From assembly GCF_001422445.1 (NCBI RefSeq), contig NZ_LMNA01000001.1, positions 418,735 to 482,734 of the forward strand: DNA of 64,000 bases. The letters run 5' to 3'. The translations under genes were made by a program, and so were the position numbers. Below the pieces are notes generated by a model. It had not been told where the DNA came from and did no database searches. It worked only from the letters and a program-made list of their open reading frames with translations. The stretch is from Pseudorhodoferax sp. Leaf274 (GTDB lineage Bacteria > Pseudomonadota > Gammaproteobacteria > Burkholderiales > Burkholderiaceae_C). The first letter of the stretch is position 1. The number at the start of each line of letters is the position of its first letter. Shown piece by piece: positions 25,808-43,432 of the stretch.

Positions 25808-26677
25808 TCACAGGCCGAGCAGCCCCAGCGCCAGGCGGTGTGCGCGCGCAGCCGGATCGGCCAGGTCGTGCAGCACGTTCATGTGGTTGCGGCCCGGCAC
25901 GGTCTCGCAGACCGGCACCGCGGCCTCGCCCCAGCGCGCGCGGATCAGCGCGTTCTGCCGCTGGAACTCGGCACTCTCCTCGCCGCCCACGAGGGCCAGC
26001 AGCGGCCCGGCGGGTGCCGGCATCCAGGCCGGGCTCAGCTGCAGGGCCGAGGCCTCGGTCAGCTTCAGGTCGCGCGCGAGGAAGGGCGCGTGGCGCAGCG
26101 GCTCCAGCTCGTACAGGCCCGACAGCGCCAGCGCGCCGCGCAGCGGCTGTGCCGGCATGCGCCGCTCGATGTCGCGCCAGTTGCAGGCCATCAGCATGGC
26201 CGCCAGGTGGCCCCCCGCGCTGTGGCCGCTCAGCGCGATGCGTTGCCGGTCCACGCCCAGGGTGTCGGCCTCGCGCCAGATCCAGGCGATGGCCTTGACC
26301 ATCTGTTGCACGATCTGCGCGATGCTGGCGTACGGCGCCAGCGCGTAGTTGGGCAGGATCACCGAGACGCCGGCGGCCACGAAGGGCTCGGCCACGAAGC
26401 TGTGGTCGCGCTTGTCCAGCGCGCGCCAGAAGCCGCCATGGATGTGGACCAGCACCGGCGCGCCTGCTGGCGCGTGCGGCTGCGCGGCGGGGAACAGGTC
26501 CAGCGTCTCCTTGGTCCCGTCGCCATAGCGCAGGTCGAGCTTGCTGCGCAGCTTGCCGCGCGCGGCCTTGGACGCGTCGGTCCAGTGCTGCAGGATCTGC
26601 GGGTGCTCGGGGATGGCGGCGCGGGCGTTGTACTGGGCGTCGTACCAGGCGGGATCGTGTTCGGGCATGGGCCTCAT
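25808..26677 (-). CDS. Alpha/beta hydrolase, kynurenine formamidase/BD-FAE-like
   Basis: This 289-residue carboxylesterase-fold hydrolase has the oxyanion motif HGGFW at about residues 80-84, the nucleophile Ser153 in GHSAGGHLAA and a C-terminal His in PGRNHMNVLHDL. This set is typical of arylformamidase/kynurenine formamidase-like and feruloyl-esterase-like (BD-FAE) enzymes. There is no signal peptide. The ATG overlaps the TetR stop by 4 bp, and a second ATG three codons later is possible. It is co-transcribed with the TetR gene that faces the catabolic cluster, so its substrate probably belongs to that pathway. Confidence 0.87.
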   Translation of the reverse strand: MRPMPEHDPAWYDAQYNARAAIPEHPQILQHWTDASKAARGKLRSKLDLRYGDGTKETLDLFPAAQPHAPAGAPVLVHIHGGFWRALDKRDHSFVAEPFVAAGVSVILPNYALAPYASIAQIVQQMVKAIAWIWREADTLGVDRQRIALSGHSAGGHLAAMLMACNWRDIERRMPAQPLRGALALSGLYELEPLRHAPFLARDLKLTEASALQLSPAWMPAPAGPLLALVGGEESAEFQRQNALIRARWGEAAVPVCETVPGRNHMNVLHDLADPAARAHRLALGLLGL

Positions 26678-27342
26678 TGTCCTGGCTTCTTCCTGGCCGC
26701 GCGCGGCGGGTTGGCCTCGCGCAGTGCGGCGTCGACCATGGCATCGGCCATCCACAGCGCGGTGCGCTCGACCTCGCGGTCGCTCACGCCCCAGATGTCC
26801 TTGAGGATCACATAGGGCTCGATGCCGTAGATCACCGACAGCGCGCGGTGCAGCCGGTCGTACACCGCCTTGGGCAGCTGGGGCGCCAGCGGCTCGAGCG
26901 CGTGCTCGAGGATGCGCACGCGGTGGCCGCGGCGGAACGGCTCCTCCTCCAGCAGGCCGGCGCGCTCCTGCGCCCATTGCTCCAGCGAGAGCAGGGCGGC
27001 GGCGCGCAGCTGCGGCTCGAACTCCTTGAAGCGCGGGAAGGTCTTCTTGAACAGCTCGTGCAGCCGCGCATGCCCGTCCGGCAGGTCGGACGCGTGGCTG
27101 CGCACCGGCCCCAGCGAGGCCTCGATCACGGCGGTCAGCAGCGCACTGCGGCTCTTGAAGTAGCGGTAGGCCGTGGCGCGCGACACCTTGGCGCGCACCG
27201 CGGTCTCGGCCACGGAAGGAATGTGGCCACCGTCCTGGATGATGGCCATGGCCGTCTCCAGCAGCAGCTTGAAGGTGGCCGCCTTGATGCCGCGCTCGGG
27301 CGGCTGCGGAGGGGGGCTGTGCGAGAACTTGGGGCGCGCCAT
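26674..27342 (-). CDS. TetR-family transcriptional regulator
   Basis: This 222-residue regulator has an N-terminal helix-turn-helix at about residues 40-62 (SVAETAVRAKVSRATAYRYFKSRSALL), preceded by a proline-rich lead, and an all-helical ligand domain behind it. It is read away from the FAH-family gene, with 162 bp between the start codons. That gap holds paired GTCTT/GAGAC elements, which suit a TetR-type operator. It most likely represses the long catabolic cluster starting at 27505 and its own operon with the esterase gene until an inducer binds. Confidence 0.92.
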   Translation of the reverse strand: MARPKFSHSPPPQPPERGIKAATFKLLLETAMAIIQDGGHIPSVAETAVRAKVSRATAYRYFKSRSALLTAVIEASLGPVRSHASDLPDGHARLHELFKKTFPRFKEFEPQLRAAALLSLEQWAQERAGLLEEEPFRRGHRVRILEHALEPLAPQLPKAVYDRLHRALSVIYGIEPYVILKDIWGVSDREVERTALWMADAMVDAALREANPPRAARKKPGQ

Positions 27343-27375
27343 GCGGGTTTGTCCGGGTCTGGGTATGTCGTTTGT

Positions 27376-27437
27376 GTCTTGCGCGGCGAGACCCGCTCAT
27401 TATGATGCGCCCATCCCGTTGTGAGACACCCGTCTTA
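27376..27437. promoter_or_regulatory. Candidate TetR operators in the divergent gap
   Basis: TGAGAC (27422-27427) and GTCTTA (27432-27437) form a 16-bp inverted repeat with a 4-base centre and one mismatch. A second pair, GTCTT (27376-27380) and GAGAC (27388-27392), repeats the same half-site in the opposite layout. Both lie between the TetR start (27342) and the FAH-family gene (27505). No convincing -35/-10 pair could be fixed. Confidence 0.45.
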
Positions 27438-27504
27438 AAACGGACATTCGATCTCACGGCCAGGGCCATGCCCTGCGACACGTGCGGCACCAGGAGACAA
27501 CACG

Positions 27505-28371: not shown

Positions 28372-28381
28372 GGCCCGCGCG

Positions 28382-29167
28382 ATGCCGTTGCACCTGATCG
28401 AACGCATGGTGGCCGAGGACGAAGGCGAGGGCGACGCCGTCGTCTGCATCCACGGCCTGGGCGGCAGCGCCAACACCTTCGGGCCCTTGCTGCCGGCGCT
28501 GCAGCGCTGCCGCGTGCTGCGGCCCGATCTGCCGGGCAGCGGGCGTTCGCAGCGTGCGGAAGGGCCCTTGACCATCCAGCGCTACGTGGACGCGGTTCAA
28601 GCGTTCTGCGACCGCGCCGGCATCCCCCGCGCGCATGTCGTCGGCCATTCCATGGGCACCATCGTGGCCCAGCACCTGGCCGTGCAGAACCCGAGGCTCG
28701 TGCGCAGCCTCGCGCTGTTCGGCCCGTTGATCACGCCGCCCGACCCGGCCCGCAACGCCATGCGCGCCCGCGCCACCAAGGCCCGTGAAGGCGTGGCCGG
28801 CCTGCACGAGATTGTGAACCAGCTGACCCAGGTGGCCGTGTCGTCGGAGACGCGCCAGAACCATCCCCTGGCGGTGGCCTTCGTCCGTGAGAGCCTGATG
28901 CGCCAGGAGCCCGAGGCCTACGCGCGCAGCTGCGAGGCGCTGGCCGGCGCCGAGCCGGCGGCCGTGGACCGCATCGCCTGCCCGGTGCTGCTGGTCACCG
29001 GTGACGAAGACGGCGTGGCGCCGCCGCAGGCCGTGCGCGCCATGGCCGAGAAGATCGCCGGCGCCCGTGTGCAGGTGCTGTCGCGCTGCGGCCACTGGAC
29101 GCCGGTGGAGCGGCCCGAGGATTGCCAGCGCGCGCTGCGCGAGTTCCTGTCCAGCGTGAGGGGCTGA
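28382..29167 (+). CDS. Alpha/beta hydrolase
   Basis: This 261-residue hydrolase of the PcaD/MhpC type has the oxyanion segment IHGLGGSANTF near residue 23, the nucleophile Ser90 in VVGHSMGT, an acid in VTGDEDGVAPP and the catalytic His in SRCGHWTPVE. It is cytoplasmic. It starts 10 bp after the FAH gene stop and ends 1 bp before the first amidohydrolase gene, so it belongs to the same transcript. It would open a lactone or ester or cleave a C-C bond in the pathway. Confidence 0.9.
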   Translation: MPLHLIERMVAEDEGEGDAVVCIHGLGGSANTFGPLLPALQRCRVLRPDLPGSGRSQRAEGPLTIQRYVDAVQAFCDRAGIPRAHVVGHSMGTIVAQHLAVQNPRLVRSLALFGPLITPPDPARNAMRARATKAREGVAGLHEIVNQLTQVAVSSETRQNHPLAVAFVRESLMRQEPEAYARSCEALAGAEPAAVDRIACPVLLVTGDEDGVAPPQAVRAMAEKIAGARVQVLSRCGHWTPVERPEDCQRALREFLSSVRG

Positions 29168-29168
29168 C

Positions 29169-30485
29169 ATGGCCGACATCCACTTCACCAACGTGCGCAT
29201 CTTCGACGGCGGCGGCGAGCAGCCCTTCATGGGCGAGCTGCTGGTGTCGGGCAACCGCATCCACCGCGTCGCCAAGACGGCTTTCGGCCAGCGCAGCCAG
29301 CCGGTGGCCGGTGCCACGGTCATCGATGGCGGCGGCGCCTTCCTGATGCCGGGCATGGTGGAGGCGCACACGCACTTCAGCTGGAACGACCAGCCCAGCC
29401 TGGACGCCATCCAGCGCATGCCGCCCGAGGAGCACATCCTGTGGTGCGCCGAAGTCGCCAAGCGTTACCTGGACATGGGATGGACGAGTTGCGTGGGCGC
29501 GGCCGCCGCCAAGCCGCGGCTCGACGTGGTGATCCGCAACGCCATCAACGACGGCACCATCATTGGCCCGCGCTACCTGGCGGCCAGCCAGGAGATCACG
29601 GTGCCCGGCGGCCTGGGCGACACCACGCAGCCGCACCTGCCACAGCCGGAATTCGCGTTCGGCGCCGTCGTCAGCGGCGCCGAGGAGATGCGCCGCTGCG
29701 TGCGCATGTTCGCCAAGTACGGCGTGGACACGCTGAAGATCAACCTGTCGGGCGAATCCATCACGGGCATGTCGTCCGAGCGCAGCCAGTTCACGTCCGA
29801 GGAGGTGCGCGTCTGCGTCGAGGAGGCCAAGGCCTGGGGCAAGCGCGTGGCCGCGCATGCGCGCAGCACCTGGGCCATCAAGCAGTGCGTGCAGCTGGGC
29901 ATCGAGGTGATCTACCACGCGAGCTTCTGCGACGAGGAGGCGCTGGACCTGCTGGAGGCGCACAAGATGCAGCACTTCGTGGCGCCCGGGCTGGCCTGGC
30001 TGATCCGCACCGTGCACAACGCCAGCGAGTACGGGCTGACGCCCGAGGTCACGCGCAAGATGGGCTACCACCGCGAGCTGGAGGCGGCCATCGCGAGCAT
30101 GCAGGCGCTGCGCCGGCGCGGCGTGCGCATCCTGCCCGGCGGCGACTACGGCTTTGCCTGGACGCCGCACGGCACCAATGCGCGCGACCTGGAGTACTTC
30201 GTCAAGGTGGTGGGCATGAGCACCATGGAGGCGCTGCTGTCGGCCACGGCCTGGGGCGGGCCGATGATGAAGCAGGGCAAGGAGATCGGCTACCTGCGCG
30301 AGGGCTGCCTGGCCGATGTGCTGCTGATCGACGGCGACCCGCTGGCCGACATCACGATCCTGCAGGACAAGGCGCGCATCCTGGCCGTGATGAAGGATGG
30401 CGAATTCCACCGCGCGCCGCCGGTGCGCGAGGGCAGCGGTTCCCCGTATCTGCGCGAGGTGCGCCCCAACCGCTGGGCGGCTTGA
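29169..30485 (+). CDS. Amidohydrolase family protein (first of two paralogues)
   Basis: This 438-residue metal-dependent hydrolase of the imidazolonepropionase-related COG1228 group has the HxH ligands at His67 and His69 (EAHTHF). Further metal or catalytic positions appear in LKINLSGES, VAAHARS, IYHASF and PGGDYGFA. The C-terminal part (GCLADVLLIDGDPLADI) is the typical composite beta-sandwich end. It should hydrolyse a cyclic amide, lactam or N-acyl bond. It is followed by a closely similar paralogue, so the two may form a hetero-oligomer or act on two related substrates. Confidence 0.92.
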   Translation: MADIHFTNVRIFDGGGEQPFMGELLVSGNRIHRVAKTAFGQRSQPVAGATVIDGGGAFLMPGMVEAHTHFSWNDQPSLDAIQRMPPEEHILWCAEVAKRYLDMGWTSCVGAAAAKPRLDVVIRNAINDGTIIGPRYLAASQEITVPGGLGDTTQPHLPQPEFAFGAVVSGAEEMRRCVRMFAKYGVDTLKINLSGESITGMSSERSQFTSEEVRVCVEEAKAWGKRVAAHARSTWAIKQCVQLGIEVIYHASFCDEEALDLLEAHKMQHFVAPGLAWLIRTVHNASEYGLTPEVTRKMGYHRELEAAIASMQALRRRGVRILPGGDYGFAWTPHGTNARDLEYFVKVVGMSTMEALLSATAWGGPMMKQGKEIGYLREGCLADVLLIDGDPLADITILQDKARILAVMKDGEFHRAPPVREGSGSPYLREVRPNRWAA

Positions 30486-30495
30486 GGAGACGACG

Positions 30496-31785
30496 ATGGC
30501 CGAAGTCCTGTTCACCAACGTGCGCATCCTCGAAGGCGGCACGCAACAGCCCTACCAGGGCAGCGTGCGCGTGGCGGGCAACCGCATCCGCGAGGTCGGC
30601 CGCAGCCTGGCGCCCGTAGGCGGTTTCCACAGCGGCGTGCAGGTCATCGACGCGGCCGGCGCCACGCTGATGCCGGGCATGTGCGAGGCGCACACGCACT
30701 TCAGCTGGAACGACGCGGCCACGTTGGCTGCCATCCAGGCGATGCCGCTGGAAGAACACGTGCTGTGGTGCGCCAAGGTGGCAGGCCGCTATCTGCAAGC
30801 GGGCTTCACCTCCTGCGTGGGTGCGGCCTGCGCCAAGCCGCGGCTGGACGTGGTCACGCGCAACGCCATCAACAAGGGCCAGATCCCCGGCCCGCGCTAC
30901 CTGGCCGCCAGCCAGGAGATCACGGTGCCCGGCGGCCTGGGCGACGAGACGCTGCCGCACCTGCCCTTTCCCGAGTTCAGCTTCGGCGTGAACGTGAACG
31001 GCGCCGACGACATGCGCAAGGCCGTGCGCCGCTTCCTGGCCTACGGCGTGGACTCGATCAAGCTCAACCTGTCGGGCGACAACTTCACGCCGCAGTCGCC
31101 GGCCGGCACCACCTGGATGACCGACGCCGAGGTGGCCGCCGCCATGCAGGAGGTCAAGATGCGCGGCAAGCGGGGTGTGGCCCATGCGCGGTCGGCCGAC
31201 AGCGTCAAGCAGGCGCTGCGCCACGGCATCGAGCTGATCTACCACGCCAGCTACACCGACACCGAGACGCTGGACCTGCTGGAGGCGGCCAAGGACCAGG
31301 TGTTCGTCGCGCCCGGCATCGCCATCCTCTACGCCATGCTGCACGAGGCCGAGCCGTTCGGCATCACGCACCAGATGGCGGTGGACATGGGCTACCAGGA
31401 CGAATGGGACAACGCCATCGCCTCGCTGCGCGCCATGCACCGGCGCGGCATCCGCGTGCTGCCGGGCGGCGACTATGGCTTCGCGTTCACGCCGCACACG
31501 CAGAACGCGCGCGACCTGGAGTTCTTCGTGAAGTACCTGGGCATGACGCCGCTGGAGGCGATCCGCTCCACGGCCGAGTTCGGCGGGCACGTCATGAAGC
31601 AGCCGCACGACCTGGGGCTCATCAAGCCTGGGTACCTGGCCGACCTGCTGCTGGTCGATGGCGACCCGCTGGCCAACCTGTCCATCCTGCGCGACCCCAA
31701 GCGCATCCTGGCGGTGATGAAGGACGGCGTGTTCGCGAAGCTGCCGCCGGTGGCCAGCGAGCGGCGTTGGGAAAGGGCGGCATGA
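30496..31785 (+). CDS. Amidohydrolase family protein (second paralogue)
   Basis: This 429-residue protein is similar along its full length to the preceding gene product, with the same ligand blocks (EAHTHF, IKLNLSGD, VAHARS, IYHASY, PGGDYGFA). A stretch around 30901 is nearly identical to that around 29578 at the DNA level, which indicates local duplication. AGGAG lies 8 bases before the ATG. The last codons overlap the LivH start (ATGA), which ties the hydrolases directly to the importer genes. It lacks the short extra C-terminal tail of its paralogue. Confidence 0.92.
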   Translation: MAEVLFTNVRILEGGTQQPYQGSVRVAGNRIREVGRSLAPVGGFHSGVQVIDAAGATLMPGMCEAHTHFSWNDAATLAAIQAMPLEEHVLWCAKVAGRYLQAGFTSCVGAACAKPRLDVVTRNAINKGQIPGPRYLAASQEITVPGGLGDETLPHLPFPEFSFGVNVNGADDMRKAVRRFLAYGVDSIKLNLSGDNFTPQSPAGTTWMTDAEVAAAMQEVKMRGKRGVAHARSADSVKQALRHGIELIYHASYTDTETLDLLEAAKDQVFVAPGIAILYAMLHEAEPFGITHQMAVDMGYQDEWDNAIASLRAMHRRGIRVLPGGDYGFAFTPHTQNARDLEFFVKYLGMTPLEAIRSTAEFGGHVMKQPHDLGLIKPGYLADLLLVDGDPLANLSILRDPKRILAVMKDGVFAKLPPVASERRWERAA

Positions 31786-32729
31786 CGCGCACCGCGCGCA
31801 TCCTGCTCTGGCTGCTCATCGGCGGCCCCATCGGGGTGTTCTCGCTCTGGGCGCTGTTCGACAACGCGCGCCTGTACGTGGTCACCATGCTGAACGGGCT
31901 GACGCTGGCTTCGCTGTACTTCATCGTCGCGAGCGGCTTCACGCTGGTGTTCGGCCTCATGCGCAACGTGAACCTGGCGCACGGCTCGCTCTACCTGCTG
32001 GGCGGCTACGTGGGCTATGTGGTGGCCGACAAGACCGGCTGGTGGCTGCTGGCGCTGGCGGCGGGCTTCGCGGCGGCGGCCGTGGCGGGCCTGCTGATCC
32101 AGGTGCTGATCCTGCGCCGCATGCAGGGCCAGGACCTGCGCCAGACGCTGGTGACCATCGGCCTGTCCATCGTGATCGCCGATGTGCTGCTGTGGATCTT
32201 CACGGGCCAGGTGCACCAGATGGAAGCGCCATCGTTCCTGCAGGGCCCCATCCGCGGCCTGCCGCTGATCAATGCCTACGGCGCCTTCCGGCTGAGCCTG
32301 CTGGGCTTCGGCCTGGCCATCGGCTTCGGACTGTGGTGGCTGCTGAACAGGACCCGCGTGGGCGCCATGATCCGCGCCGGCGTGGACGACCGCGGCATGC
32401 TGGCCGCATCCGGGGTGAACGTGAACCTCGTGTTCGCCATCACCTTCATGCTGGGTGCCGGGCTTGCGGGCTTCGGCGGCGTGATCGGTGCGGTGGAGCT
32501 GTCGATGGTGCCGGGCGAGGACATCCGGCTGCTGCTGGCCTCGCTGGTCGTGGTGATCGTGGGCGGCATGGGCAGTGTGGTGGGGGCCGCCATCGGTGCG
32601 GTGATCCTGGGGCTGGCGGAGACCTATGGGCTGGCTTATGCGCCGACCTACAGCGTGGTGTTCACGTTCGTGATCCTGATCCTGGTGCTGGCGTTCCGGC
32701 CGCGCGGGATCATGGGGAAGGCAGCATGA
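31782..32729 (+). CDS. LivH-type ABC transporter permease
   Basis: This 315-residue branched-chain amino acid-type permease has about eight membrane helices. LNGLTLASLYFIVASGFTLVFGLMRNVNLAHGS is represented piecewise by the typical LivH segments GLTLASLYFIVASG and MRNVNLAHGSLY. The coupling loop RVGAMIRAGVDDRGMLAASG and the glycine-rich VVVIVGGMGSVVGAAIG are also present. It pairs with LivM, but the two genes are separated here by an unusual 459-bp repeat-rich stretch instead of being adjacent. Confidence 0.94.
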   Translation: MTRTARILLWLLIGGPIGVFSLWALFDNARLYVVTMLNGLTLASLYFIVASGFTLVFGLMRNVNLAHGSLYLLGGYVGYVVADKTGWWLLALAAGFAAAAVAGLLIQVLILRRMQGQDLRQTLVTIGLSIVIADVLLWIFTGQVHQMEAPSFLQGPIRGLPLINAYGAFRLSLLGFGLAIGFGLWWLLNRTRVGAMIRAGVDDRGMLAASGVNVNLVFAITFMLGAGLAGFGGVIGAVELSMVPGEDIRLLLASLVVVIVGGMGSVVGAAIGAVILGLAETYGLAYAPTYSVVFTFVILILVLAFRPRGIMGKAA

Positions 32730-32843: not shown

Positions 32844-32880
32844 ATGCAAGCTTGTGCACTCGGTCTTTGCGGTGGCGCCC

Positions 32881-32989
32881 GACCACGCCGACGGTGTGCT
32901 CCACTCCGCGAATGTCCCCCGCCCAGGGCCGCAGGCGGCCCAGGGCTCCTCCTTTATTTCGCTGCGTGGAGCACACCATCGTCGTGGTC
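32881..32989. repeat. Left hairpin module of the livH-livM intergenic element
   Basis: A 61-bp core (32905-32965) is enclosed by 24-bp arms (32881-32904 and 32966-32989). The arms are mutual reverse complements with two mismatches, and the inner 12 bp (GGTGTGCTCCAC) are perfect. The core contains its own GGGCCGC/GCGGCCC hairpin and the string CTCCTCCTTTATTTCGCTGC. The same core recurs inverted at 33059-33117. Confidence 0.8.
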
Positions 32990-32995
32990 CGGAAC

Positions 32996-33027
32996 CGTCG
33001 CGTCGCACGAGCCAGCACGACGCGACG
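32996..33027. repeat. Central hairpin of the livH-livM intergenic element
   Basis: CGTCGCGTCG (32996-33005) and its exact reverse complement CGACGCGACG (33018-33027) flank a 12-base loop. It lies between the two oppositely oriented core modules and marks the approximate symmetry centre of the whole element. Confidence 0.7.
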
Positions 33028-33037
33028 TGCCCAGGGT

Positions 33038-33138
33038 CGAGGGTACCGGGTGGCCTCTGCAGCGAAATAAAGGAGGAGCCTGGGCCGCCTGCGGCCCAGG
33101 CGGGGGACATTCGCGGAAGAGGCCACCCGGTGCCCTCG
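33038..33138. repeat. Right hairpin module of the livH-livM intergenic element
   Basis: A 59-bp core (33059-33117) is the reverse complement of the left core apart from two single-base gaps and one substitution-like difference in the GC-rich centre. It is enclosed by 21-bp arms (33038-33058 and 33118-33138) that pair with one mismatch, and the inner 14 bp are perfect. The arm sequence is unrelated to the arms of the left module. The core is therefore conserved while the stem varies but stays self-complementary. From here to the livM start at 33189 no further structure is seen. Confidence 0.8.
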
Positions 33139-33188
33139 GCCCCCGCGCCACGCCTCCTGCGCAAACCGCAGCGAGGGGAGCTCCTGCG

Positions 33189-34304
33189 ATGAGTGCCTCC
33201 CAATGGCGCCGCGCCATGAACCGCCAGCCCACGGCGCCGGTCACCCGACCCCGCCCCAGCGCTGCGCCGACGGCCGCCAACACACCGCAGCCCCGCACAG
33301 CCGCCTGGCGGACCCTGCGCCCCCGCCACGGCATCGTGCTGATCGGGGCCCTGCTGTTCCCCTTCGTCGCCACGCCCTTCTTCACCTACCAGGTGGCAGC
33401 CCAATCCTTGGTGTTGGGCCTGATCGCCCTGTCGCTGACCTTCCTGGGCGGCTACGGGGGCATGGTCTCGCTGGCGCAGATGACCGTGGCCGGCATCGCG
33501 GGCTACGCCATGGCCGTGCTGGGCACCAGCAGCAGCGCGGCCATCAGCCTGGGCTGGCCCTGGTGGGTGGCGGTGCCGTTCGCGCTGCTGATCGCGGTGG
33601 CCTGCGCCGCGCTGATCGGCTGGCTGTCGGTGCGCACCGAGGGCATCTACACCATCATGATCACGCTGGCCATCGGCGTGGCGTTCTACTACCTGGTGCT
33701 GCAGAACTACAGCATCTTCAACGGCTTCCAGGGCCTGCGCGAACTGCACCCGCCCGATGTGTTCGGCGTGGACTTGCGCAAGCCGGTGCCGTTCTATTTT
33801 CTTGCGCTGGTGTGCGCACTCGCGGGCTACGGCCTCGTCAAGTGGATCGTGCGCGCACCCTTCGGCATCGCGCTGCAGGGCGTGCGCGACAACCCGCGCC
33901 GCATGGCCGCGCTGGGCTACGACGTGGTGGCGCACCGCGTGGCGGCCTACGCCTTCGCCGGCCTGCTGGCGGCCGTGGGCGGCATCCTGCTGGCCTGGTA
34001 CAACGGACTGATGACCCCCGGATCGGTCGGCACCAGCTGGCTCATCAACATCCTGGTCGTCGCGGTGCTGGGCGGCATGCGCCACCCCATCGGCGCGTTC
34101 GTCGGCGCGGTGCTGTTCGTGCTGCTGCAGACCTTCGCCATCGACCTGGTCGACCGCGAACGCTTCAACCTCGTCATCGGCGGCGTGTTCCTCGCCATCG
34201 TGCTGTGTTCCCCCGACGGCCTGCTCGGACTGTGGGCGCGTGCGCGTGCGCGCTTCGCACCCCGGCAGACCATGACAACGCCAACCCCAAGGAGACAAGC
34301 GTGA
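33189..34304 (+). CDS. LivM-type ABC transporter permease
   Basis: This 371-residue permease has about ten membrane helices and an unusual polar, proline-rich N-terminal extension of ~50 residues (MSASQWRRAMNRQP...). Core family segments include GGYGGMVSLAQMTVAGIAGY and GVRDNPRRMAALGYDV. The latter is the coupling loop to the ATPases. The start at 33189 was chosen because the repeat element lies directly upstream. A later Met (MNRQP) is also possible. The stop overlaps the GTG start of the binding-protein gene. It forms the channel with LivH. Confidence 0.93.
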   Translation: MSASQWRRAMNRQPTAPVTRPRPSAAPTAANTPQPRTAAWRTLRPRHGIVLIGALLFPFVATPFFTYQVAAQSLVLGLIALSLTFLGGYGGMVSLAQMTVAGIAGYAMAVLGTSSSAAISLGWPWWVAVPFALLIAVACAALIGWLSVRTEGIYTIMITLAIGVAFYYLVLQNYSIFNGFQGLRELHPPDVFGVDLRKPVPFYFLALVCALAGYGLVKWIVRAPFGIALQGVRDNPRRMAALGYDVVAHRVAAYAFAGLLAAVGGILLAWYNGLMTPGSVGTSWLINILVVAVLGGMRHPIGAFVGAVLFVLLQTFAIDLVDRERFNLVIGGVFLAIVLCSPDGLLGLWARARARFAPRQTMTTPTPRRQA

Positions 34305-35536
34305 ACCTCAAGCAAACCCTGCTGGCCGCTGCGGCCACCTGCGTCGTGACCGGTGCCTGGGCCCAGGGCGGCCCCATCAAGATCGGCCTGCTGGCCACGC
34401 TGGAAGGACCGTTCGCGGCCGGTGGCGCCGACGGCATGCGCGGCGCGGAGCTGGCCGTCAAGGAGCGTGGCGGCATGGTGGCGGGGCGCAAGATCGAACT
34501 CATCAAGGCCAGCTCGGACGCCAAGCCCGACGTGGCCGTCAACGCCACGCGCAAGCTGGTGGAGCAGGACAAGGTCGACATCATGGTCGGCCCGCTGTCG
34601 GGCGGCGAAGGCATCGCGGTGAAGGACTACTCCAAGACCCAGCCGCAGGTGACCTTCATCAACGGTGCCTCGGGCGCGCAGGGCACCACGCTGGACAGCC
34701 CCAGCCCCAATTTCTACCGCTTCAACACCGAGGGCGCGCAGTGGATGGTGGGCCTGGGCCAGGCCGCGCTGGACAAGGGCTACAAGCGCGTGATGGTCAT
34801 CGCCGAGGACTACGCCTTCCCCTATTCGCAGGTGCAGGGCTTCATGGCCGAGTACTGCGCCAAGGGCGGCAAGGTGCCGGTCAAGGCCTGGGTGCCGCTG
34901 GGCGGCAAGGACTACAGCTCGGTGATCGCGCGCATCCCCAAGGACGTGGACGCGCTGCTGGTGGTGCTGGGCGGCGCCGACGCGGTGAACTTCCTCACGC
35001 AGTACGAGAACGCCGGCGGCGACAAGCCGATGCTGGGCGGCTCCATCACGGTGAGCCAGGACGTGCTGAACTACCGCGGCAAGCGGCGCGATTCGCTGGT
35101 GGGCACGCTGTCGGCCGGCCCGGTGGCCGACAGCTACGACGGCGCCGGCTGGAAGTCCTTCGTGGCCGACTACCAGAAGACCTACCCGGTGTCCTCCGGC
35201 GCGTTCCCCAGCCCCAGCCTGTTCGCCTACGTGTACTACACCAACATGAAGGCCGCGCTGGACGGGCTCGACGCCGTGAAGGGAGATCTCTCGGGCGGCC
35301 AGGCCAAGTACCGCGAGGCACTGCAGAAGCTGGTGCTCAAGACGCCCACGGGCGACGTGCGGCTGGACGGCAACCGCCAGGCCATCGGCACCACCTTCGT
35401 GACCGAGGTGGTCAAGGACGCGCAGGGCAACCTCACGACCAAGGTGAGCAAGAAGGTCGACAACATCGACCAGCTGCTGGGCATGAAGAAGGAAGACTTC
35501 AAGATGGGCACGCGGGATGTCCCCGCCTGCCCCTGA
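34301..35536 (+). CDS. Branched-chain-amino-acid-type ABC transporter substrate-binding protein
   Basis: This 411-residue periplasmic binding protein (Peripla_BP_6) has a signal peptide with cleavage at about residue 25 (GAWA-QGG), and the mature part opens IKIGLLATLEGPFAAGGADG. The GTG start at 34301 overlaps the livM stop by 4 bases and has AAGGAG 6 bases upstream, so it is well supported. It supplies the LivHM channel with the cluster's substrate, which from context is probably an amide, ester or aromatic acid. Confidence 0.93.
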   Translation: MNLKQTLLAAAATCVVTGAWAQGGPIKIGLLATLEGPFAAGGADGMRGAELAVKERGGMVAGRKIELIKASSDAKPDVAVNATRKLVEQDKVDIMVGPLSGGEGIAVKDYSKTQPQVTFINGASGAQGTTLDSPSPNFYRFNTEGAQWMVGLGQAALDKGYKRVMVIAEDYAFPYSQVQGFMAEYCAKGGKVPVKAWVPLGGKDYSSVIARIPKDVDALLVVLGGADAVNFLTQYENAGGDKPMLGGSITVSQDVLNYRGKRRDSLVGTLSAGPVADSYDGAGWKSFVADYQKTYPVSSGAFPSPSLFAYVYYTNMKAALDGLDAVKGDLSGGQAKYREALQKLVLKTPTGDVRLDGNRQAIGTTFVTEVVKDAQGNLTTKVSKKVDNIDQLLGMKKEDFKMGTRDVPACP

Positions 35537-35550
35537 GCAAGGCTGAACGC

Positions 35551-36356
35551 GTGGCCACCGTCACTCCGCTGCGCCCCGCCGCCCGTTCCAGCGCCGCCCC
35601 GCGCGCGCTGGCCTCGGGCGATGCGCTCGCGCTCGAAGGCGTCACGCGCGCCTTCGGGGCGCTGCGCGCCGTGGACGACGTGAGCTTCTCGGTGGCCGCC
35701 GGCCAGCGCTATGCCGTGCTGGGCAGCAACGGCGCGGGCAAGACCACGCTGTTCAACGCCATCACGGGCGACTTTCCGCCGACCAGCGGGCGCATCCGCT
35801 TCTTCGGCGAGGACATCACGGCGCTGCCGCCGCACGAACGCATCCGCAAGGGGCTGCGGCGCACCTACCAGTCCTCGTTGCTGTTCCGCGAGCTCAGCGT
35901 GCGCGACAACCTGTTCCTGGCCGTGCGCGGCGTGGCCAACGGCCGCTTCAGCCTGCGGCGCGCCGGGCCGGGCCACGGCTCCACGCAGGCGACCGAGGAA
36001 CTGCTGGAGCGCGCCCGCCTGGCCCACATCGCCGACGAGCTGGTGGCCAACCTCGCGCATGGCCAGCAGCGCCAGCTGGAGATCGGCATGGCGCTGGCCG
36101 GCGCGCCGCGGCTGATCCTGTTCGACGAGCCGGCCGCCGGGCTGTCGCCGGCGGAACGGCGCGAGCTGGTGGCGCTGCTGAACGCACTGCCCGCGCACAT
36201 GGGCTTCGTGATCATCGAGCACGACCTGGACATCGCGCTGCGCGTGACCGAGAAGGTGACCGTGATGCACAACGGCCGCGTGCTCAAGACCGGCACGCCG
36301 GCCGAGATGGAGAACGACGGCCAGGTGCAGGCCATCTACATGGGCGGGAGGCATTG

Positions 36357-36357
<1 letters not shown>
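35551..36357 (+). CDS. LivG-type ABC transporter ATP-binding protein
   Basis: This 268-residue ATPase has a short variable N-terminus, Walker [10 protein letters not shown] near residue 60, the LivG-type signature [16 protein letters not shown] and Walker [14 protein letters not shown]. The end QAIYMGGRH is typical of LivG. A GTG at 35551 is used as start because no ATG precedes the conserved domain closely. It partners the LivF half of the next gene, and its stop overlaps that ATG. Confidence 0.92.
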
Positions 36358-38547
<2,190 letters not shown>

Positions 38548-38570
<23 letters not shown>

Positions 38571-39378
38571 ACTGCTGCGGCGCTTCCGCGCCAAGATCGC
38601 TGCGGGCCGGCCACTGATCGGCGGCGGCGCCGGCACCGGACTGTCGGCCAAGTGCGAGGAGGCCGGCGGCATCGACCTGATCGTCATCTACAACTCGGGC
38701 CGCTACCGCATGGCCGGCCGCGGCTCGTTGGCGGGGCTGCTGGCCTACGGCAACGCCAACGAGATCGTCTGCGAGATGGCGCGCGAGGTGCTGCCCGTCG
38801 TCAAGCACACCCCGGTGCTGGCCGGCGTGAACGGCACCGACCCCTTCATGATCCCCGAGCAGTTCTTGCGCCGGCTGGTGGACCTCGGCTTCTCGGGCAT
38901 CCAGAATTTCCCGACGGTGGGCCTGATCGACGGGAGCTTTCGCGCCAACCTGGAGGAGACCGGCATGGGCTATGGGCTGGAGGTGGAGCTGGTGGCCCGC
39001 GCGCGCGCCATGGACCTGCTGACCACGCCCTACGTGTTCTGCGAGGCCGATGCGCGCGCCATGGCGAAGGCCGGCGCCGACATCGTCGTCTGCCACCTGG
39101 GCCTGACGACGGGCGGCAGCATCGGTGCCGAGACCGCGCTGCAGCTCTCGGACTGCGTGGCACCCATCAAGGCCTGGGCCGCCGCCGCCAAGGCCGTCAA
39201 CCCCGAGCAGCTGGTGCTGTGCCATGGCGGCCCCATCGCCACGCCGGAGGACGCCCGCTGGATCCTCGGCCAATGCCCTGAACTGCATGGCTTCTATGGC
39301 GCCAGCTCGATGGAGCGGCTGCCCACCGAGATCGCATTGACTGAAACCACCCGACGCTTCACGGAGATTGCACTATGA
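38548..39378 (+). CDS. PEP-hydrolase-like/Tm-1 C-terminal TIM-barrel protein
   Basis: This 276-residue TIM-barrel protein belongs to the phosphoenolpyruvate hydrolase-like family, which also forms the C-terminal half of plant Tm-1. Segments such as [37 protein letters not shown], seen piecewise as GAGTGLSAK and [14 protein letters not shown], and [14 protein letters not shown] are conserved. The ATG at 38548 lies 23 bp inside the fusion gene, so translation is coupled. It probably works with the UPF0261 domain. No reaction has been established that I can name with confidence. Confidence 0.88.
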
Positions 39379-41066
39379 CCGGCGCTGAATTCGGCAGCTT
39401 CCTTCTCGGCCTGATCGTGGTGGTCATCGCCGTGGCCATCGTGGTCTGGCTGTTCCACTGGCTGTACCTGCGCAGCAGCAAGGAGCGCGCGTTCGTGCGC
39501 ACCGGCATGGGCGGGCAGAAGGTGGTGCTGGGCGGCGGCGCCTTCGTGCTGCCCATCGTGCACGACGTGATCCCGGTGAACATGAACACGCTGCGGCTGG
39601 AGGTCAGCCGCGGCCGCGACAAGGCCTTGATCACCAAGGACCGCATGCGCGTGGACGTGATCGCCGAGTTCTACGTGCGCGTGGCCGCCGAGCCCGAGGC
39701 CGTGGCGGCCGCCGCCCAGACCCTGGGCCTGCGCACCATGGAGCCCGAGCAGCTCAAGGAGCTGGTGGAAGGCAAGTTCGTCGACGCGCTGCGCACCGCC
39801 GCGGCCGAGATGAGCATGGAGGAACTGCACGAGAAGCGCGGGGCCTACGTCAAGCGCGTGCGCGAGGCCGTGGCCGGCGACCTGACCATGAACGGCCTGG
39901 AGCTGGAGGCCGCCTCGCTGACGCAGCTGGACCAGACGGCGATGGAGTACTTCAACCCCAGCAATGCCTTCGACGCCGAGGGTTTGACGCGGCTGACCGA
40001 GCAGATCGAACGCCGCAAGAAGCAGCGCAACGACGTGGAGCAGGACACGCTGATCGCCATCCGCAACAAGAACCTGGAGGCCGAGAAGCTGAGCCTGGAC
40101 ATCGACCGCGAGGCCGAGCATGCGCGCCTGCACCAGCAGCGCGAGGTGGAGATCGCGCGGGCCCGCCAGCGCGCCGAGCTGACCAGCGAGCGCGCCCAGA
40201 GCGAGCAGAACGCCGAGGGCGCGCAGATCACGGCCAAGCAGGCCATCGACCTGGCCCGCATCCGCAGCGAGCAGAGCCTGGAGCAGGAGCGCATCACCAA
40301 GGAACGCACGCTGCAGGCCGCAGAGATCGCGCGCCGCCAGTCGCTGGAACTGGCCGAGCAGCAGCGCGCCATCGCCGTGGCGCGCGAGAGCGAGGCGCTG
40401 TCGAACGCGCAGGCCGGTGCCGAGGCTGCCCGCGCGCTGGCCGTTGCGGCCGAAGAAAAGGTGTTCACCGCGCGCGAGGTGGAGATGGCCGAGCGCAAGA
40501 AGGCCATCGAGCTGATCGGCGCCGCGCAGGCGGCCGAGCGCGAGGCGCTGCAGCTGACCACCGCGGCCCAGGCAGAGAAGGCCGCCAGCGCCGACCGCGG
40601 GGCCGCCATCCGCGCGCAGGCCGAGGCCGATGCCGACGCGGACCGCATCAAGGCCCTGGCCGTGCGCGTGCGCGCCGAGATCGAGGCGGAGGCACAGCGC
40701 TGGATGAACGAGGCGCAGAACGTGCTCTCGCCCGAGGCCCGCACCTCGGCGCTGCGCATGCGCCTGGTGGAGAAGGCCGAGGGCATCATCCGCGAATCGG
40801 TGCGGCCGATGGAGCGCATCGAGGGCATCAAGATCCTGCACGTGGACGGGCTGGGCGGCGGCGGGGGCGGTGGGGGCGATGGCGGTGGCGGCGGCTTCGC
40901 CGATGGCGTCGTCAACTCCGCGCTGCGCTTCCGTGCGCAGGCACCGCTGGTGGACCAGCTGCTGCGCGAGATCGGCCTGGACGCGGGCGACATCCAGCGG
41001 CTGGCCGGCGCCAGCTCGGGCGCGAACGCGGCCTTGCCACCGGCCCAGCAGAAGGCTGAAACCTGA
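39375..41066 (+). CDS. Flotillin/SPFH-domain membrane protein (YqiK-like)
   Basis: This 563-residue protein has one N-terminal membrane helix (about residues 8-32) and an SPFH/PHB domain (~35-190, [27 protein letters not shown]). A long charged coiled coil rich in Glu/Arg/Gln/Ala follows (~195-470). A run of glycines near 492-507 precedes the C-terminal end. Flotillins scaffold membrane microdomains. The ATG overlaps the stop of the TIM-barrel gene. Finding it inside a catabolic ABC operon is odd and suggests it anchors or clusters the transporter or enzymes. Confidence 0.92.
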
Positions 41067-41500
41067 TGGTCCGCCTGTACGTCTCCACCGTGGTCGAGGC
41101 CGGCGCCGACAACGTCTGGGCACGCATCCGCGACTTCAACGGGCTGCCGCAGTGGCATCCGGGCATCGCGGACAGCCGCATCGAGAACGGCGAACCGAGC
41201 GACCGCGTGGGCTGCATCCGCCACTTCCACACGCGCGACGGCGGCACCATCCGTGAGCGGCTGCTGGCCCTGTCCGACTTCGACTACGCGCAGACCTACG
41301 AGATCCTGGAGAGCCCCATGGGCGTGGAGCACTACGTGGCCACGCTCAAGCTCACGCCCGTGACCGACGGCAACCGCTGCTTCGCCGAATGGAGCGCCGA
41401 GTTCGACTGCGACGAGGGGCGCGAGCAGGAGCTGACGCGGACGATTGCCGATGGCGTGTTCCAGACCGGCTTCGACGCGCTCAAGCGTCTGTACAGATGA
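41066..41500 (+). CDS. SRPBCC family protein
   Basis: This 144-residue START/Bet v1-like (SRPBCC, polyketide cyclase type) protein opens VSTVVEAGADNVWARIRDF and has LPQWHPGIADSRIENG and LTPVTDGNRCFAEWSAEFD. Such proteins bind hydrophobic ligands and some act as cyclases. It starts in the flotillin stop (TGATG). It is clearly paralogous to the N-terminal domain of the next gene product, so a ligand-binding duplication has occurred. Confidence 0.9.
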   Translation: MVRLYVSTVVEAGADNVWARIRDFNGLPQWHPGIADSRIENGEPSDRVGCIRHFHTRDGGTIRERLLALSDFDYAQTYEILESPMGVEHYVATLKLTPVTDGNRCFAEWSAEFDCDEGREQELTRTIADGVFQTGFDALKRLYR

Positions 41501-41582
41501 GCCCCCACGCTCGTCACTTCGTGTACTCGCTGCCCCCCAAGGGGGCGCAGGCCCGCCTTGGGGCGGCCCGGCGGTGGGCCTG
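41501..41582. repeat. GC-rich palindromic intergenic element
   Basis: The whole 82-bp gap between two SRPBCC genes is made of a GC-rich element. It has a GCCCCC/GGGGGC hairpin at 41532-41546 (loop CAA) and a CCGCC/GGCGG hairpin at 41553-41566. It resembles interspersed palindromes that I associate with Comamonadaceae, but I cannot verify other copies. It abuts the start codon at 41583, leaving no normal ribosome site. Confidence 0.6.
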
Positions 41583-43043
41583 ATGCTGCAGAAGGTGGTC
41601 CGCTCGACGGTGATCGACGCGCCCATCGAGCGCGTCTGGGCCGTGCTGCGCGATTTCAACAGCCACGACCAGTGGCACGACGTGGTGGAACAGAGCCGCA
41701 TCGAGGGCGGCGAACGCAGCGACCAGGTCGGCTGCGTGCGCAGCTTCTCGCTGAAGGACGGCAACCGCATCCGCGAGCAGCTGCTGACGCTGGACGACCG
41801 CCAGTACAAGAGCACCTACTGCATCGTCGAGGCCACGGTGCCGCTGCTGCGCTACGCGGCCACCGTCACGCTCAAGCCCGTGACCGATGGCAACCGCACC
41901 TTCTGGCACTGGGAATCGACCTTCGCCACGCCCCCCGGGCGCGAGCGCGAACTGCGCGACATGGTGGCGCAGGGCGTGTACGAGGCCGGCTTCGCCAACC
42001 TGCGCCGGCACCTGCAGCGCGCAAACGACCTGCGCGCGCCGGGGCGGGCCGCGATGCCGGTGGCCATCGCGCTGCCCACGCGGCGCGTGCGGCTGCACGC
42101 CTATGGCGACGCGGCGCAGCTGCGCGCCGAGGACGCCGAGGCCCCGCCGCCCGCGCCCGGCGAGGTGCGCATCCGCCAGCGGGCCATCGGCCTGAACTAC
42201 ATCGACGTGTACCAGCGCCGCGGGCAGATCCCTTCGATGCTCGCGCCCGGCGGCACGCCCGGCATGGAGGCGGCCGGCAGCGTGCTGGACTGCGGCGAGG
42301 GCGTGCACGGATTCCTGGCCGACGAACGCGTGGCCTACCTGTGCCCGCAACCCGGCGCCTACACCGGCGTGCGCAACGTGCCGGCCCAGTGGCTGGTGCG
42401 GCTGCCTCCCGCGGTGGACGACGACGTGGCCGCCGCACTGCTGCTCAAGGGCCTGACCGCCGACGCGCTGTTGCACGACGTGGCGCCCGTGAAGCCCGGC
42501 GCGCGCTGGCTTGTGCATGCCGCCGCCGGCGCGCTGGGCCAGGTGCTGTGCCAATGGGCCGCCCGCCTGGGCGCGCAGGTCATCGGCACCGTCTCGAACG
42601 AGGCCAAGGCCCGCATCGCGCGCGCCCACGGCTGCACGCAGGTGATCGTCACATCCGACTACCGCTTCGCCGATGCGGTGCAGGCCATGGGCGGCGCCGA
42701 TGTCATCGTCGACGGCCTGGGCCAGCAGGCGCAGCAGCAGAACCTGGCCGCACTGGCCCCGTGCGGCCACTGGATCAGCCTGGGCCAGGCCAGCGGCCCG
42801 CTGGCGCCGCTGGACCCGGACGCGCTGCTGATGAAGTCCGCCACGTTCTCGCGCCCCATCGTGTTCGTCTACGTGGCGCAGCCGCAGACCCTGGCGCGCC
42901 GCGCAGCCCGCGTGTGGGCGGCGCTGGCCGACGGCAGCATCACGATGCCCACCATCGAGCGCTTCACGCTGGAGAGCGCGGCCCAGGCGCACGAGCGCCT
43001 GGAGTCGCGCGAGCGCAGCGGCGCCCTCATCCTGATCCCCTGA
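41583..43043 (+). CDS. SRPBCC domain fused to quinone oxidoreductase-like zinc-less MDR
   Basis: This 486-residue fusion has residues 1-~148 as an SRPBCC domain (STVIDAPIERVWAVLRDF, LKPVTDGNRTFWHWES). Residues ~158-486 are a medium-chain reductase of the NADPH:quinone oxidoreductase type (IGLNYIDVYQRRG, GTPGMEAAG, HAAAGALGQVLCQWAARLGAQVIGT). The MDR half lacks zinc ligands, as usual for QOR. The two halves may bind a hydrophobic enone or quinone and reduce it. The start at 41583 follows the palindromic element directly, and no better start keeps the SRPBCC domain intact. Confidence 0.88.
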   Translation: MLQKVVRSTVIDAPIERVWAVLRDFNSHDQWHDVVEQSRIEGGERSDQVGCVRSFSLKDGNRIREQLLTLDDRQYKSTYCIVEATVPLLRYAATVTLKPVTDGNRTFWHWESTFATPPGRERELRDMVAQGVYEAGFANLRRHLQRANDLRAPGRAAMPVAIALPTRRVRLHAYGDAAQLRAEDAEAPPPAPGEVRIRQRAIGLNYIDVYQRRGQIPSMLAPGGTPGMEAAGSVLDCGEGVHGFLADERVAYLCPQPGAYTGVRNVPAQWLVRLPPAVDDDVAAALLLKGLTADALLHDVAPVKPGARWLVHAAAGALGQVLCQWAARLGAQVIGTVSNEAKARIARAHGCTQVIVTSDYRFADAVQAMGGADVIVDGLGQQAQQQNLAALAPCGHWISLGQASGPLAPLDPDALLMKSATFSRPIVFVYVAQPQTLARRAARVWAALADGSITMPTIERFTLESAAQAHERLESRERSGALILIP

Positions 43044-43054
43044 GGGAGCGCCCC

Positions 43055-43432
43055 ATGATCCTCGGCATGAACCACTTCACCGTGATCGCGGAGAACCCGC
43101 AGGCCACGATGGATTTCTACACCGGCATGCTGGGCCTGAAGGAAGGCTTCCGGCCCGACCTGGGGTTCCCCGGAGCGTGGCTCTACGGCGAAGACACCAG
43201 GCACGCCATCCTGCACGTCTACTTCGACCGGCCCGTGCCGGCGCAGCGCGCGGGCGTGATCGACCACATGGCATTCACAGCCAAGGGGCTCCGGGAGGTC
43301 AAGGCGCGCTTCGACGCGGCGGGCTGGAAGTACGACCTGCGGCGGCAGGCCGGGGCGCTGTGGCAGCTGTTCTGCCACGACCCGAACGGGGCGAAAGTGG
43401 AGCTGGATTTCGACAAGGCGGAGGAGCCGTAA
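43055..43432 (+). CDS. VOC (glyoxalase/bleomycin resistance) family protein
   Basis: This 125-residue vicinal-oxygen-chelate protein has LGMNHFTVIAENPQATMDFYTGMLGLKEGFRP at its start, identifiable by MNHFTVI and DFYTGMLGL. A second half with IDHMAFTAKGLREVKARF and a C-terminal VELDF follow. The metal ligands His8 and the Glu of the VELDF motif are in family positions. It could be a dioxygenase, lyase or isomerase for a pathway intermediate. It is the last gene of the cluster, 11 bp after the fusion gene. The 68 bp beyond are A+T-rich and contain no gene. Confidence 0.9.
   Translation: MILGMNHFTVIAENPQATMDFYTGMLGLKEGFRPDLGFPGAWLYGEDTRHAILHVYFDRPVPAQRAGVIDHMAFTAKGLREVKARFDAAGWKYDLRRQAGALWQLFCHDPNGAKVELDFDKAEEP

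What the first reader, a model, noticed from the sequence alone, without database searches (positions are those of the whole stretch)
26674..43432. A 16-kb TetR-controlled uptake-and-breakdown system of unusual composition
One strand carries FAH hydrolase, alpha/beta hydrolase, two amidohydrolases, a complete five-part HAAT importer, a Tm-1-like domain and TIM barrel, a flotillin, two SRPBCC units, a quinone reductase and a VOC protein. They have start/stop overlaps or gaps of a few bases almost throughout. The first gene faces a TetR-esterase pair. The gene content implies import of a hydrophobic amide, ester or ring compound, hydrolysis, and reduction. The combination with UPF0261 and flotillin is not one I can match to a named pathway.
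Basis: partly seen in the sequence, partly recalled or inferred. Interest (0 to 1): 0.72.

Follow-up and report, generated by a model that had tools for sequence, protein, structure and literature searches.

The report
Importer fused to Tm-1-like protein
A block of fourteen co-directional bacterial genes with its own repressor, conserved as a unit in many related bacteria, appears to import an unknown small molecule and break it down, and the importer's motor is physically joined to a relative of a tomato virus-resistance protein and, more distantly, of a protein that binds an aromatic ketone, so uptake and chemical activation may be coupled.

Summary
At 27505-43432 (+) lie FAH hydrolase, alpha/beta hydrolase, two amidohydrolases, a five-part HAAT importer, UPF0261, a PEP_hydrolase-type TIM barrel, flotillin, SRPBCC, an SRPBCC::quinone-reductase fusion and VOC, facing TetR and an esterase. 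In 43 related long-flank loci (chosen by the importer-UPF0261 fusion) the core is present in 43 and the order kept in 37. The TetR operator (consensus TTTGAGAC-N4-GTCTCAAA, here 27420-27439) follows a -10-like box and recurs in 8 of 11 distant TetR|UPF0261 loci. Best reading: an importer that hands cargo to a tethered ATP-dependent activating enzyme, with TIM barrel and SRPBCC as partners and hydrolases completing breakdown. Shown: anatomy, conservation, operator sites, fusion. Inferred: kinase activity, coupling, flotillin's role, the order in which modules were gained. Unknown: the substrate. New variant of a known kind; the coupling, if real, would be new.

The parts
25808..26668 (-). alpha/beta hydrolase (esterase, BD-FAE/Abhydrolase_3), behind TetR
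   Evidence: Pfam; NCBIfam; a relative in 23 of 43 long-flank loci
26674..27342 (-). TetR-family repressor
   Evidence: TetR_N 2.3e-6; found in 42 of 43 loci
27401..27406 (+). -10-like box TATGAT, 13 bp upstream of the operator
   Evidence: TATGAT or TATCAT at 13 bp in 41 of 57 related sites
27420..27439 (.). TetR operator TGTGAGACACCCGTCTTAAA (consensus TTTGAGACNNNNGTCTCAAA)
   Evidence: only exact TGAGACNNNNGTCTYA in the genome
27505..28371 (+). FAH-family hydrolase
   Evidence: E136 E138 D167 in at least 97% of 63 sequences
28382..29167 (+). alpha/beta hydrolase, PcaD-like but below cut-off
   Evidence: S90 D210 H238 in at least 97% of 67 sequences
29169..30485 (+). amidohydrolase AH1
   Evidence: H67 H69 K190 H230 H250 D326 in at least 97% of 74 sequences
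30496..31785 (+). amidohydrolase AH2 (59% identical to AH1)
   Evidence: H66 H68 K189 H230 H250 D326 in at least 97% of 74 sequences
31782..32729 (+). HAAT permease LivH (nearest model UrtB, below cut-off)
32870..33150 (.). hairpin repeat element between livH and livM
33189..34304 (+). HAAT permease LivM
34301..35536 (+). HAAT substrate-binding protein (GTG start)
35551..36357 (+). ABC ATPase LivG (GTG start)
36354..38570 (+). fusion LivF (ABC ATPase, residues 1 to about 235) :: linker :: UPF0261 / Tm-1-like domain (about 331-725)
38548..39378 (+). PEP_hydrolase-like TIM barrel (counterpart of the second half of plant Tm-1)
39375..41066 (+). flotillin with one strong N-terminal hydrophobic segment
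41066..41500 (+). SRPBCC protein 1
41583..43043 (+). fusion SRPBCC 2 :: quinone oxidoreductase-like domain
   Evidence: 63 of 69 related ORFs are 450 aa or longer, the six shorter ones not examined
43055..43432 (+). VOC protein
   Evidence: 35 of 43 loci

Best explanation
A self-contained, TetR-repressed import-and-catabolism operon. Without inducer TetR sits on the palindrome next to the promoter of the long operon. An Urt/Liv-type HAAT importer brings in an unknown small molecule. One importer ATPase, LivF, is covalently tethered to a UPF0261 (Tm-1-like) domain which, with the separately encoded PEP_hydrolase-like TIM barrel, forms a split Tm-1-type enzyme. I propose that UPF0261 activates (most likely phosphorylates) the cargo or an early intermediate as it enters, and that the TIM barrel acts on the product; SRPBCC proteins carry or rearrange a hydrophobic intermediate and the flotillin keeps the parts at the membrane. 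The two amidohydrolases, the PcaD-like hydrolase, the FAH hydrolase and the quinone-reductase-like enzyme complete breakdown. Shown: genes, fusions, conserved order, operator sites, conserved residues, occurrence of the modules apart. Inferred: operon transcription, TetR binding, kinase activity, coupling, flotillin role, reaction order, history. Unknown: substrate.
For: Synteny: core in 43 of 43 long-flank loci, order kept in 37; median gaps at most 29 bp in all junctions. Operator within 3 mismatches of 16 fixed letters in 57 of 72 TetR upstream regions (five pairs are one locus fetched twice; consensus taken from the same set) against about 0.2 expected in letter shuffles; in 8 of 11 distant TetR|UPF0261 loci not used for the consensus. 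Fusion: 97 related ORFs of 700 aa or more (some one locus fetched twice) align over LivF and UPF0261 with linkers of 84-134 aa and a partly conserved N/TRWN motif. Unfused neighbours livF, UPF0261, TIM, SRPBCC in L171 suggest the older arrangement. UPF0261 relative Saro_1862 is solved with acetovanillone (9mpy); MarK, a single-component kinase of the same organism, starts acetovanillone breakdown (passages in PMC13101465). 53 of 76 residues invariant in 23 UPF0261 sequences are kept in 9mpy against 35% overall identity; any shared fold would give some such excess. LivH, LivM and binding protein distances go together (r 0.76-0.87) but apart from the rest (0.27-0.56), while LivG and UPF0261 track the enzymes, as expected if the ATPase side and the enzymes form one machine.
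Against: No transcript, enzyme or substrate data. 9mpy is only about 35% identical and its pathway type has biotin carboxylase and HAD phosphatase genes (115-117), not seen here. That Saro_1862 is MarK is my inference; the MarK paper is not held. The TIM fold search does not single out phospho-compound enzymes: triosephosphate isomerase, tryptophan synthase and PLP synthase folds score like methylisocitrate lyase. TIM does not follow the fusion in two loci that otherwise match (L148, L157). Some operator regions lack a good site (8 of 11 distant ones have it; L019, L105 and L133 have 5 mismatches; L034, L088 and L093 have 6-8). The 459-bp hairpin element could end transcripts between livH and livM. 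In S. meliloti the SMa1334 insertion (398 aa, the length of the UPF0261 protein there) had normal symbiosis and no nodule expression (PMC3462710).
Confidence: 0.55

Rival explanations
1. The Tm-1-like pair is a sensor, not an enzyme: UPF0261 fused to LivF gates the importer according to an internal metabolite or ATP level, as regulatory domains on some other importer ATPases do (recalled).
For: A TIM barrel of the same family is built into a sigma-54 activator beside UPF0261-TIM genes (L132: PF09370 + Sigma54_activat + HTH_8; ORFs of similar length with TIM matches in L135, and L171, not Pfam-tested), so the fold can sense. UPF0261 sits exactly on an importer ATPase.
Against: UPF0261-TIM pairs occur without an annotated importer nearby, next to TetR in Vibrio casei and in haloarchaea; a UPF0261 relative binds acetovanillone and one is apparently a kinase.
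Confidence: 0.2
2. Two or three functional blocks that merely share a promoter: an uptake/UPF0261/SRPBCC system and an independent FAH-ABH-amidohydrolase pathway captured next to it.
For: FAH-ABH-amidohydrolase stands with a GntR/FCD regulator in Pseudomonas, Pantoea, Cupriavidus, Paraburkholderia and Azospirillum plasmids.
Against: Joined in the 43 fusion-bearing loci (FAH 40), with one operator in front of the hydrolase genes and distance correlations of 0.45-0.91 among the non-permease genes; two further loci, L148 and L157, also carry FAH-ABH-AH1 in front of the importer.
Confidence: 0.2
3. An ordinary HAAT importer plus amide catabolism; UPF0261 is a passenger with a housekeeping role.
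For: HAAT importers beside catabolic genes are common (established knowledge).
Against: The fusion with a partly conserved linker motif is kept in 97 related ORFs, while the full-length fusion was found in only 2 of 274 class genomes sampled: rare but kept where present.
Confidence: 0.05

Closest known systems
MarK (very probably Saro_1862, PDB 9mpy), Novosphingobium aromaticivorans; and the Hpe/Acv acetovanillone pathways
   Same: UPF0261 fold; 35% identity; 53 of 76 core residues kept; ATP-dependent start of a catabolic route (PMC13101465, passages)
   Different: No importer fusion known to me; plasmid relatives sit with biotin carboxylase and HAD genes, not seen here. Hpe and Acv start with a two-component kinase of another kind (PMC12167813, PMC9618137, passages).
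Plant Tm-1 / Tm-1-like proteins (UPF0261 + TIM in one chain)
   Same: Both halves present and adjacent; UPF0261 E 1.5e-93 to Tm-1
   Different: Here the TIM is a separate gene and UPF0261 is fused to an ABC ATPase; in plants the two are fused to each other (PMC5028733, abstract and passages)
HAAT importers LivFGHM / UrtABCDE
   Same: Full set of two permeases, two ATPases and binding protein; best-scoring models for each part are Urt
   Different: All below the Urt cut-offs; one ATPase carries an enzyme-family domain
FAH-alpha/beta hydrolase-amidohydrolase cassette with GntR/FCD regulator
   Same: Same three families in the same order, AH1 59-65% identical
   Different: No UPF0261, TIM, flotillin or SRPBCC annotated within 9 kb; GntR/FCD instead of TetR
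Membrane microdomains and an importer ATPase in Staphylococcus aureus haem uptake (PMC10147376; search listing and start of abstract only)
   Same: Microdomains and an ABC importer ATPase act in one uptake route
   Different: Different importer class; no fusion to a metabolic enzyme that I know of (recalled)

Membership tests
HAAT ABC importer | two BPD_transp_2 permeases, two ABC ATPases, one binding protein; Walker A, signature and Walker B in LivF | tested here: met
   (motifs [18 protein letters not shown] read in LivF)
Urea importer UrtABCDE | curated NCBIfam cut-offs | tested here: not met
   UrtA 75/493, UrtB 160/250, UrtC 121/296, UrtD 206/304, UrtE 207/286 bits
Tm-1-like pair | UPF0261 and PEP_hydrolase domains above Pfam cut-off, side by side | tested here: met
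   209 and 298 bits (cut-off 27), 424 bits (cut-off 33.8); genes overlap by 23 bp
MarK-type kinase | ATP-dependent phosphorylation of a hydroxyphenylethanone | not testable with these tools
   needs an enzyme assay; 53 of 76 core residues kept
MarK-type pathway | biotin-dependent carboxylase and HAD phosphatase genes beside the kinase | tested here: not met
   none among the 20 ORFs between 24506 and 46304 put to Pfam; the rest of the genome was not searched for them
Flotillin | Band_7/SPFH plus Flot C-terminal domain | tested here: met
   62.6 and 123.8 bits, over cut-off; the NCBIfam FloT equivalog is missed, 33 of 700 bits
Flotillin | adjacent NfeD partner (recalled feature) | tested here: not met
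   neighbours are TIM and SRPBCC
Xaa-Pro dipeptidase (NF051886) | curated cut-off 500 bits | tested here: not met
   217 and 223 bits
3-oxoadipate enol-lactonase PcaD | curated cut-off 255.85 bits | tested here: not met
   152 bits
Methylisocitrate lyase / PEP mutase enzymes | fold | tested here: inconclusive
   Foldseek E about 1e-8, TM about 0.55, 16% identity, but other TIM-barrel enzymes score alike
Methylisocitrate lyase / PEP mutase enzymes | metal-binding Asp/Glu motif (recalled) | tested here: inconclusive
   by eye the recalled positions read otherwise ([15 protein letters not shown]) in alignment A1; no residue-level superposition was made

The most novel reading that the evidence does not exclude
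An ABC importer that works like a group-translocation system: the ATPase subunit carries, on a tether, a kinase that phosphorylates the cargo on entry, so transport and metabolic trapping are one machine, assembled with its TIM-barrel partner and SRPBCC carriers on a flotillin scaffold. The plant virus-resistance protein Tm-1 would then descend from this kind of enzyme pair.
Probability: 0.25. Interest if true: 0.88.

Novelty: new variant of a known kind. Interest (0 to 1): 0.62.

Why it matters
UPF0261 and PEP_hydrolase-like proteins occur in bacteria, archaea, fungi and plants (PMC5028733, abstract), and tomato's fused version, Tm-1, blocks tomato mosaic virus. Apart from MarK, found late through a structure title and a citing paper, the searches by family name gave no bacterial role. 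A conserved operon with its own importer, repressor and operator gives a direct experimental handle: the repressor's inducer and the binding protein's ligand should name the substrate of this branch of the family. If the ATPase-tethered enzyme modifies the cargo on entry, it would be a kind of coupled uptake that I do not know for ABC importers (recall; not searched as such).

Tried and rejected
Substrate from named families: all curated NCBIfam cut-offs missed for FAH, ABH, AH1, AH2 and the importer parts. Urea importer: rejected by cut-offs. Substrate through S. meliloti: the homologue lies on pSymA; the record has no annotation, so the locus tag was guessed from map position (recall) and met in PMC3462710, where SMa1334 is listed at 398 with three genes 3' of it; the protein length agrees, but its mutant showed no symbiotic phenotype (section 12 read in full, passages otherwise). 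PMC2848018 held none of the tags. Search for flotillin + SRPBCC + amidohydrolase + ABC transporter together: no paper. CoxG-like carrier role of SRPBCC: considered because L146 has xanthine-dehydrogenase-type subunits next to SRPBCC and CoxG is an SRPBCC protein (PMC4240915, passages); left as a lead. Wider regulon: two one-mismatch places beside the exact operator, no more than the backward-pattern control. Chance fusion or gene-calling artefact: rejected. The AH2 count of 43 of 43 came from cross-hits to AH1; (42 of 43) replaces it. L022, L026 and L028 looked unfused only because LivG was the stored hit: L026 is a 728-aa fusion, and L022 and L028, same contigs as G004 and G003 by length, have frames of 1007 and 1027 aa. 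The simple gene caller missed the TIM genes of L145, L147 and L149 and the ABH genes of L148 and L157; one search corrects this. The 504 relatives were not checked for fusion; only the 80 kept loci were used.


Full report
What is there. The window lies in a 6.74-Mb genome whose nearest named loci are Pseudorhodoferax. On the + strand from 27505 to 43432 are, in order, FAH, ABH, AH1, AH2, LivH, LivM, binding protein, LivG, LivF::UPF0261, TIM, flotillin, SRPBCC1, SRPBCC2::QOR and VOC; opposite lie TetR (26674-27342) and an esterase (25808-26668). Gaps run from -23 to +14 bp except livH-livM (459 bp) and srp1-srp2 (82 bp). The 459-bp gap holds a hairpin (DNA fold z -12.6) whose 18-base core occurs 17 times in the genome at up to one mismatch, 14 of them as seven pairs 117 bp apart, against 0 for the control. 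In four other loci of the genus the gap is -4, 198, 320 and 372 bp; arms of the same element are seen in the loci with the two longest gaps and not in the one with -4.

Is it one unit? A scan with the fusion protein kept 80 loci, by their titles mostly Burkholderiales. Of the 43 of at least 22 kb, 43 have ABH, AH1, LivH, LivM, binding protein, LivG, LivF, UPF0261, TIM, flotillin, SRPBCC1, SRPBCC2 and QOR; AH2 is in 42, TetR in 42, FAH in 40, VOC in 35, esterase in 23. The order of the window is kept in 37; in three FAH and VOC lie on the other side of TetR, in three ABH and AH1 swap. Median gaps are at most 29 bp. These loci were found by the fusion, so they say nothing of loci without it. Among 100 relatives 11, the window's own genome included, hold a UPF0261 gene (5 of 6 in the genus), 9 of the 11 in frames of fusion size (767 aa or more): conserved in structure, patchy in distribution.

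Regulation. The TetR-FAH interval carries TATGAT at 27401 and, 13 bp on, TGTGAGACACCCGTCTTAAA at 27420-27439. In relatives this is the palindrome TTTGAGACNNNNGTCTCAAA. Of 72 TetR upstream regions, 47 have a site with at most 2 and 57 with at most 3 mismatches to the 16 fixed letters; single-letter shuffles give about 0.1 and 0.2. The consensus was read from some of these regions, and five pairs are one locus fetched twice. TATGAT or TATCAT stands 13 bp before 41 of the 57 sites. In the own genome the only exact match to the core pattern is this one. So this TetR belongs with the UPF0261-TIM module, and its inducer is likely a compound of that module (inference).

The fusion. LivF and UPF0261 form one ORF of 738 aa with ABC motifs intact; 97 related ORFs of at least 700 aa (some one locus fetched twice) align over both, with linkers of 84-134 residues and a partly conserved motif around N/TRWN. 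In an even sample of 274 genomes of the class the full-length fusion was found in 2, the own genome among them. One sampled genome has livH livM SBP livG livF UPF0261 TIM SRPBCC as separate neighbours (L171), another has UPF0261 divergent from the importer genes (L173); L172 has the fusion with TIM, flotillin, SRPBCC1, SRPBCC2, QOR and FAH. Of seven loci from genomes of other classes, four (L145, L146, L149, L150) have importer, fusion, TIM, flotillin and two SRPBCC but no FAH or amidohydrolase; L147 has QOR, FAH and ABH after SRPBCC2; L148 and L157 have FAH-ABH-AH1 in front of the importer and no TIM between fusion and flotillin. In L146 xanthine-dehydrogenase-type subunits follow SRPBCC, and L148 has a GntR/FCD regulator. 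FAH-ABH-amidohydrolase also stands apart with GntR/FCD regulators, in Burkholderiales too. A history that fits, not tested by trees: UPF0261-TIM with TetR; then SRPBCC or cupin and various importers; then HAAT; then the fusion, flotillin and the second SRPBCC::QOR; hydrolases joining more than once.

Two rates of evolution. Pairwise protein distances over the 80 loci (51 to 80 loci per gene) correlate at 0.76-0.87 within LivH, LivM and binding protein, but at 0.27-0.56 between these and the other genes, which correlate at 0.45-0.91 among themselves. The membrane and binding parts seem to have been exchanged as a block while LivG and UPF0261 stayed with the enzymes. Relatedness of loci was not corrected for.

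What the parts do. AH1 and AH2 keep H-x-H, K, H, H, D in at least 97% of 74 aligned sequences each; FAH keeps E, E, D (63 sequences); ABH keeps S, D, H (67) (that these are catalytic is recalled family knowledge). TIM is 66% identical to solved 2p10, and beyond it the nearest folds are methylisocitrate lyase, triosephosphate isomerase, tryptophan synthase, pyridoxal-phosphate synthase and carboxyphosphonate phosphorylmutase, all at E about 1e-8, so the fold does not fix the chemistry. UPF0261 matches tomato Tm-1 (1.5e-93) and, at fold level, 9mpy: Saro_1862 of Novosphingobium aromaticivorans with acetovanillone bound. [quoted passage not shown] its reference list gives the MarK paper, which is not held. 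That Saro_1862 is MarK is inference. Two plasmid records, of Sphingomonas bisphenolicum and Pseudomonas putida YC-AE1, carry a UPF0261 gene next to biotin carboxylase and HAD genes, as in the Hpe/Acv type of pathway (PMC9618137, passages). Of 76 residues invariant in 23 UPF0261 sequences, 53 are kept in 9mpy at 35% overall identity. This makes ATP-dependent transfer the likeliest chemistry for UPF0261, without proving it for this clade. PMC9618137 itself suggests that phosphorylation may trap a diffusing substrate (passage).

Against. No substrate is fixed; no activity is measured; two loci lack TIM next to the fusion; a TIM barrel also serves as a domain of a sigma-54 activator (L132), so a regulatory reading of the pair stays open; the S. 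meliloti homologue's mutant has no known phenotype.

Verdict. The finding is real and richer than stated: a conserved gene block with its own operator and an importer-enzyme fusion. Its pathway is not named in the searches made. I rate it a new variant of a known kind.

Noticed in passing
window 32870-33150: About 260-bp hairpin repeat element between livH and livM; its 18-base core occurs 17 times in the genome, 14 of them in seven pairs 117 bp apart.
   Followed up: partly
window 41501-41582: GC-rich 82-bp gap with an inverted repeat (seen by eye) between srp1 and the srp2::qor fusion, unlike the other junctions.
   Followed up: no
L132:13850-15676; L135:14556-16406; L171:2879-4597: PEP_hydrolase TIM barrel as part of a sigma-54 activator beside UPF0261-TIM genes (Pfam only for L132; the others by length and TIM match): a possible sensor use of the fold.
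   Followed up: partly
L022-L101, livH-livM-SBP: Two versions of the permease/binding-protein block (LivH and SBP about 78-97% or about 54-71% identical to the window), apparently exchanged within a stable operon.
   Followed up: partly
L136 and L174: Sphingomonas bisphenolicum pBAR1 and Pseudomonas putida YC-AE1 plasmid: UPF0261 + biotin carboxylase + HAD genes, probably a MarK-type aryl ketone pathway.
   Followed up: partly
L139-L143: FAH - alpha/beta hydrolase - amidohydrolase cassette with GntR/FCD regulator on plasmids of Pseudomonas, Pantoea, Cupriavidus, Paraburkholderia, Azospirillum; function not found here.
   Followed up: partly
L146:2-2065: Xanthine-dehydrogenase-type FAD, 2Fe-2S and molybdopterin subunits after SRPBCC in a locus of another class, where the window has the quinone reductase.
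   Followed up: no
L131:12963-15215: The LivF::UPF0261 fusion of Variovorax paradoxus VAI-C is annotated 'ABC transporter permease', a misnaming.
   Followed up: no
window 43600-46304: Fic-family protein right after the operon, then ECF sigma factor and FecR; no Fic match is printed for the related loci.
   Followed up: no
plasmids collection: A flotillin related to this one is carried by 232 Escherichia plasmid records (those listed about 48% identical); 263 of the 321 matching records are typed conjugative.
   Followed up: no
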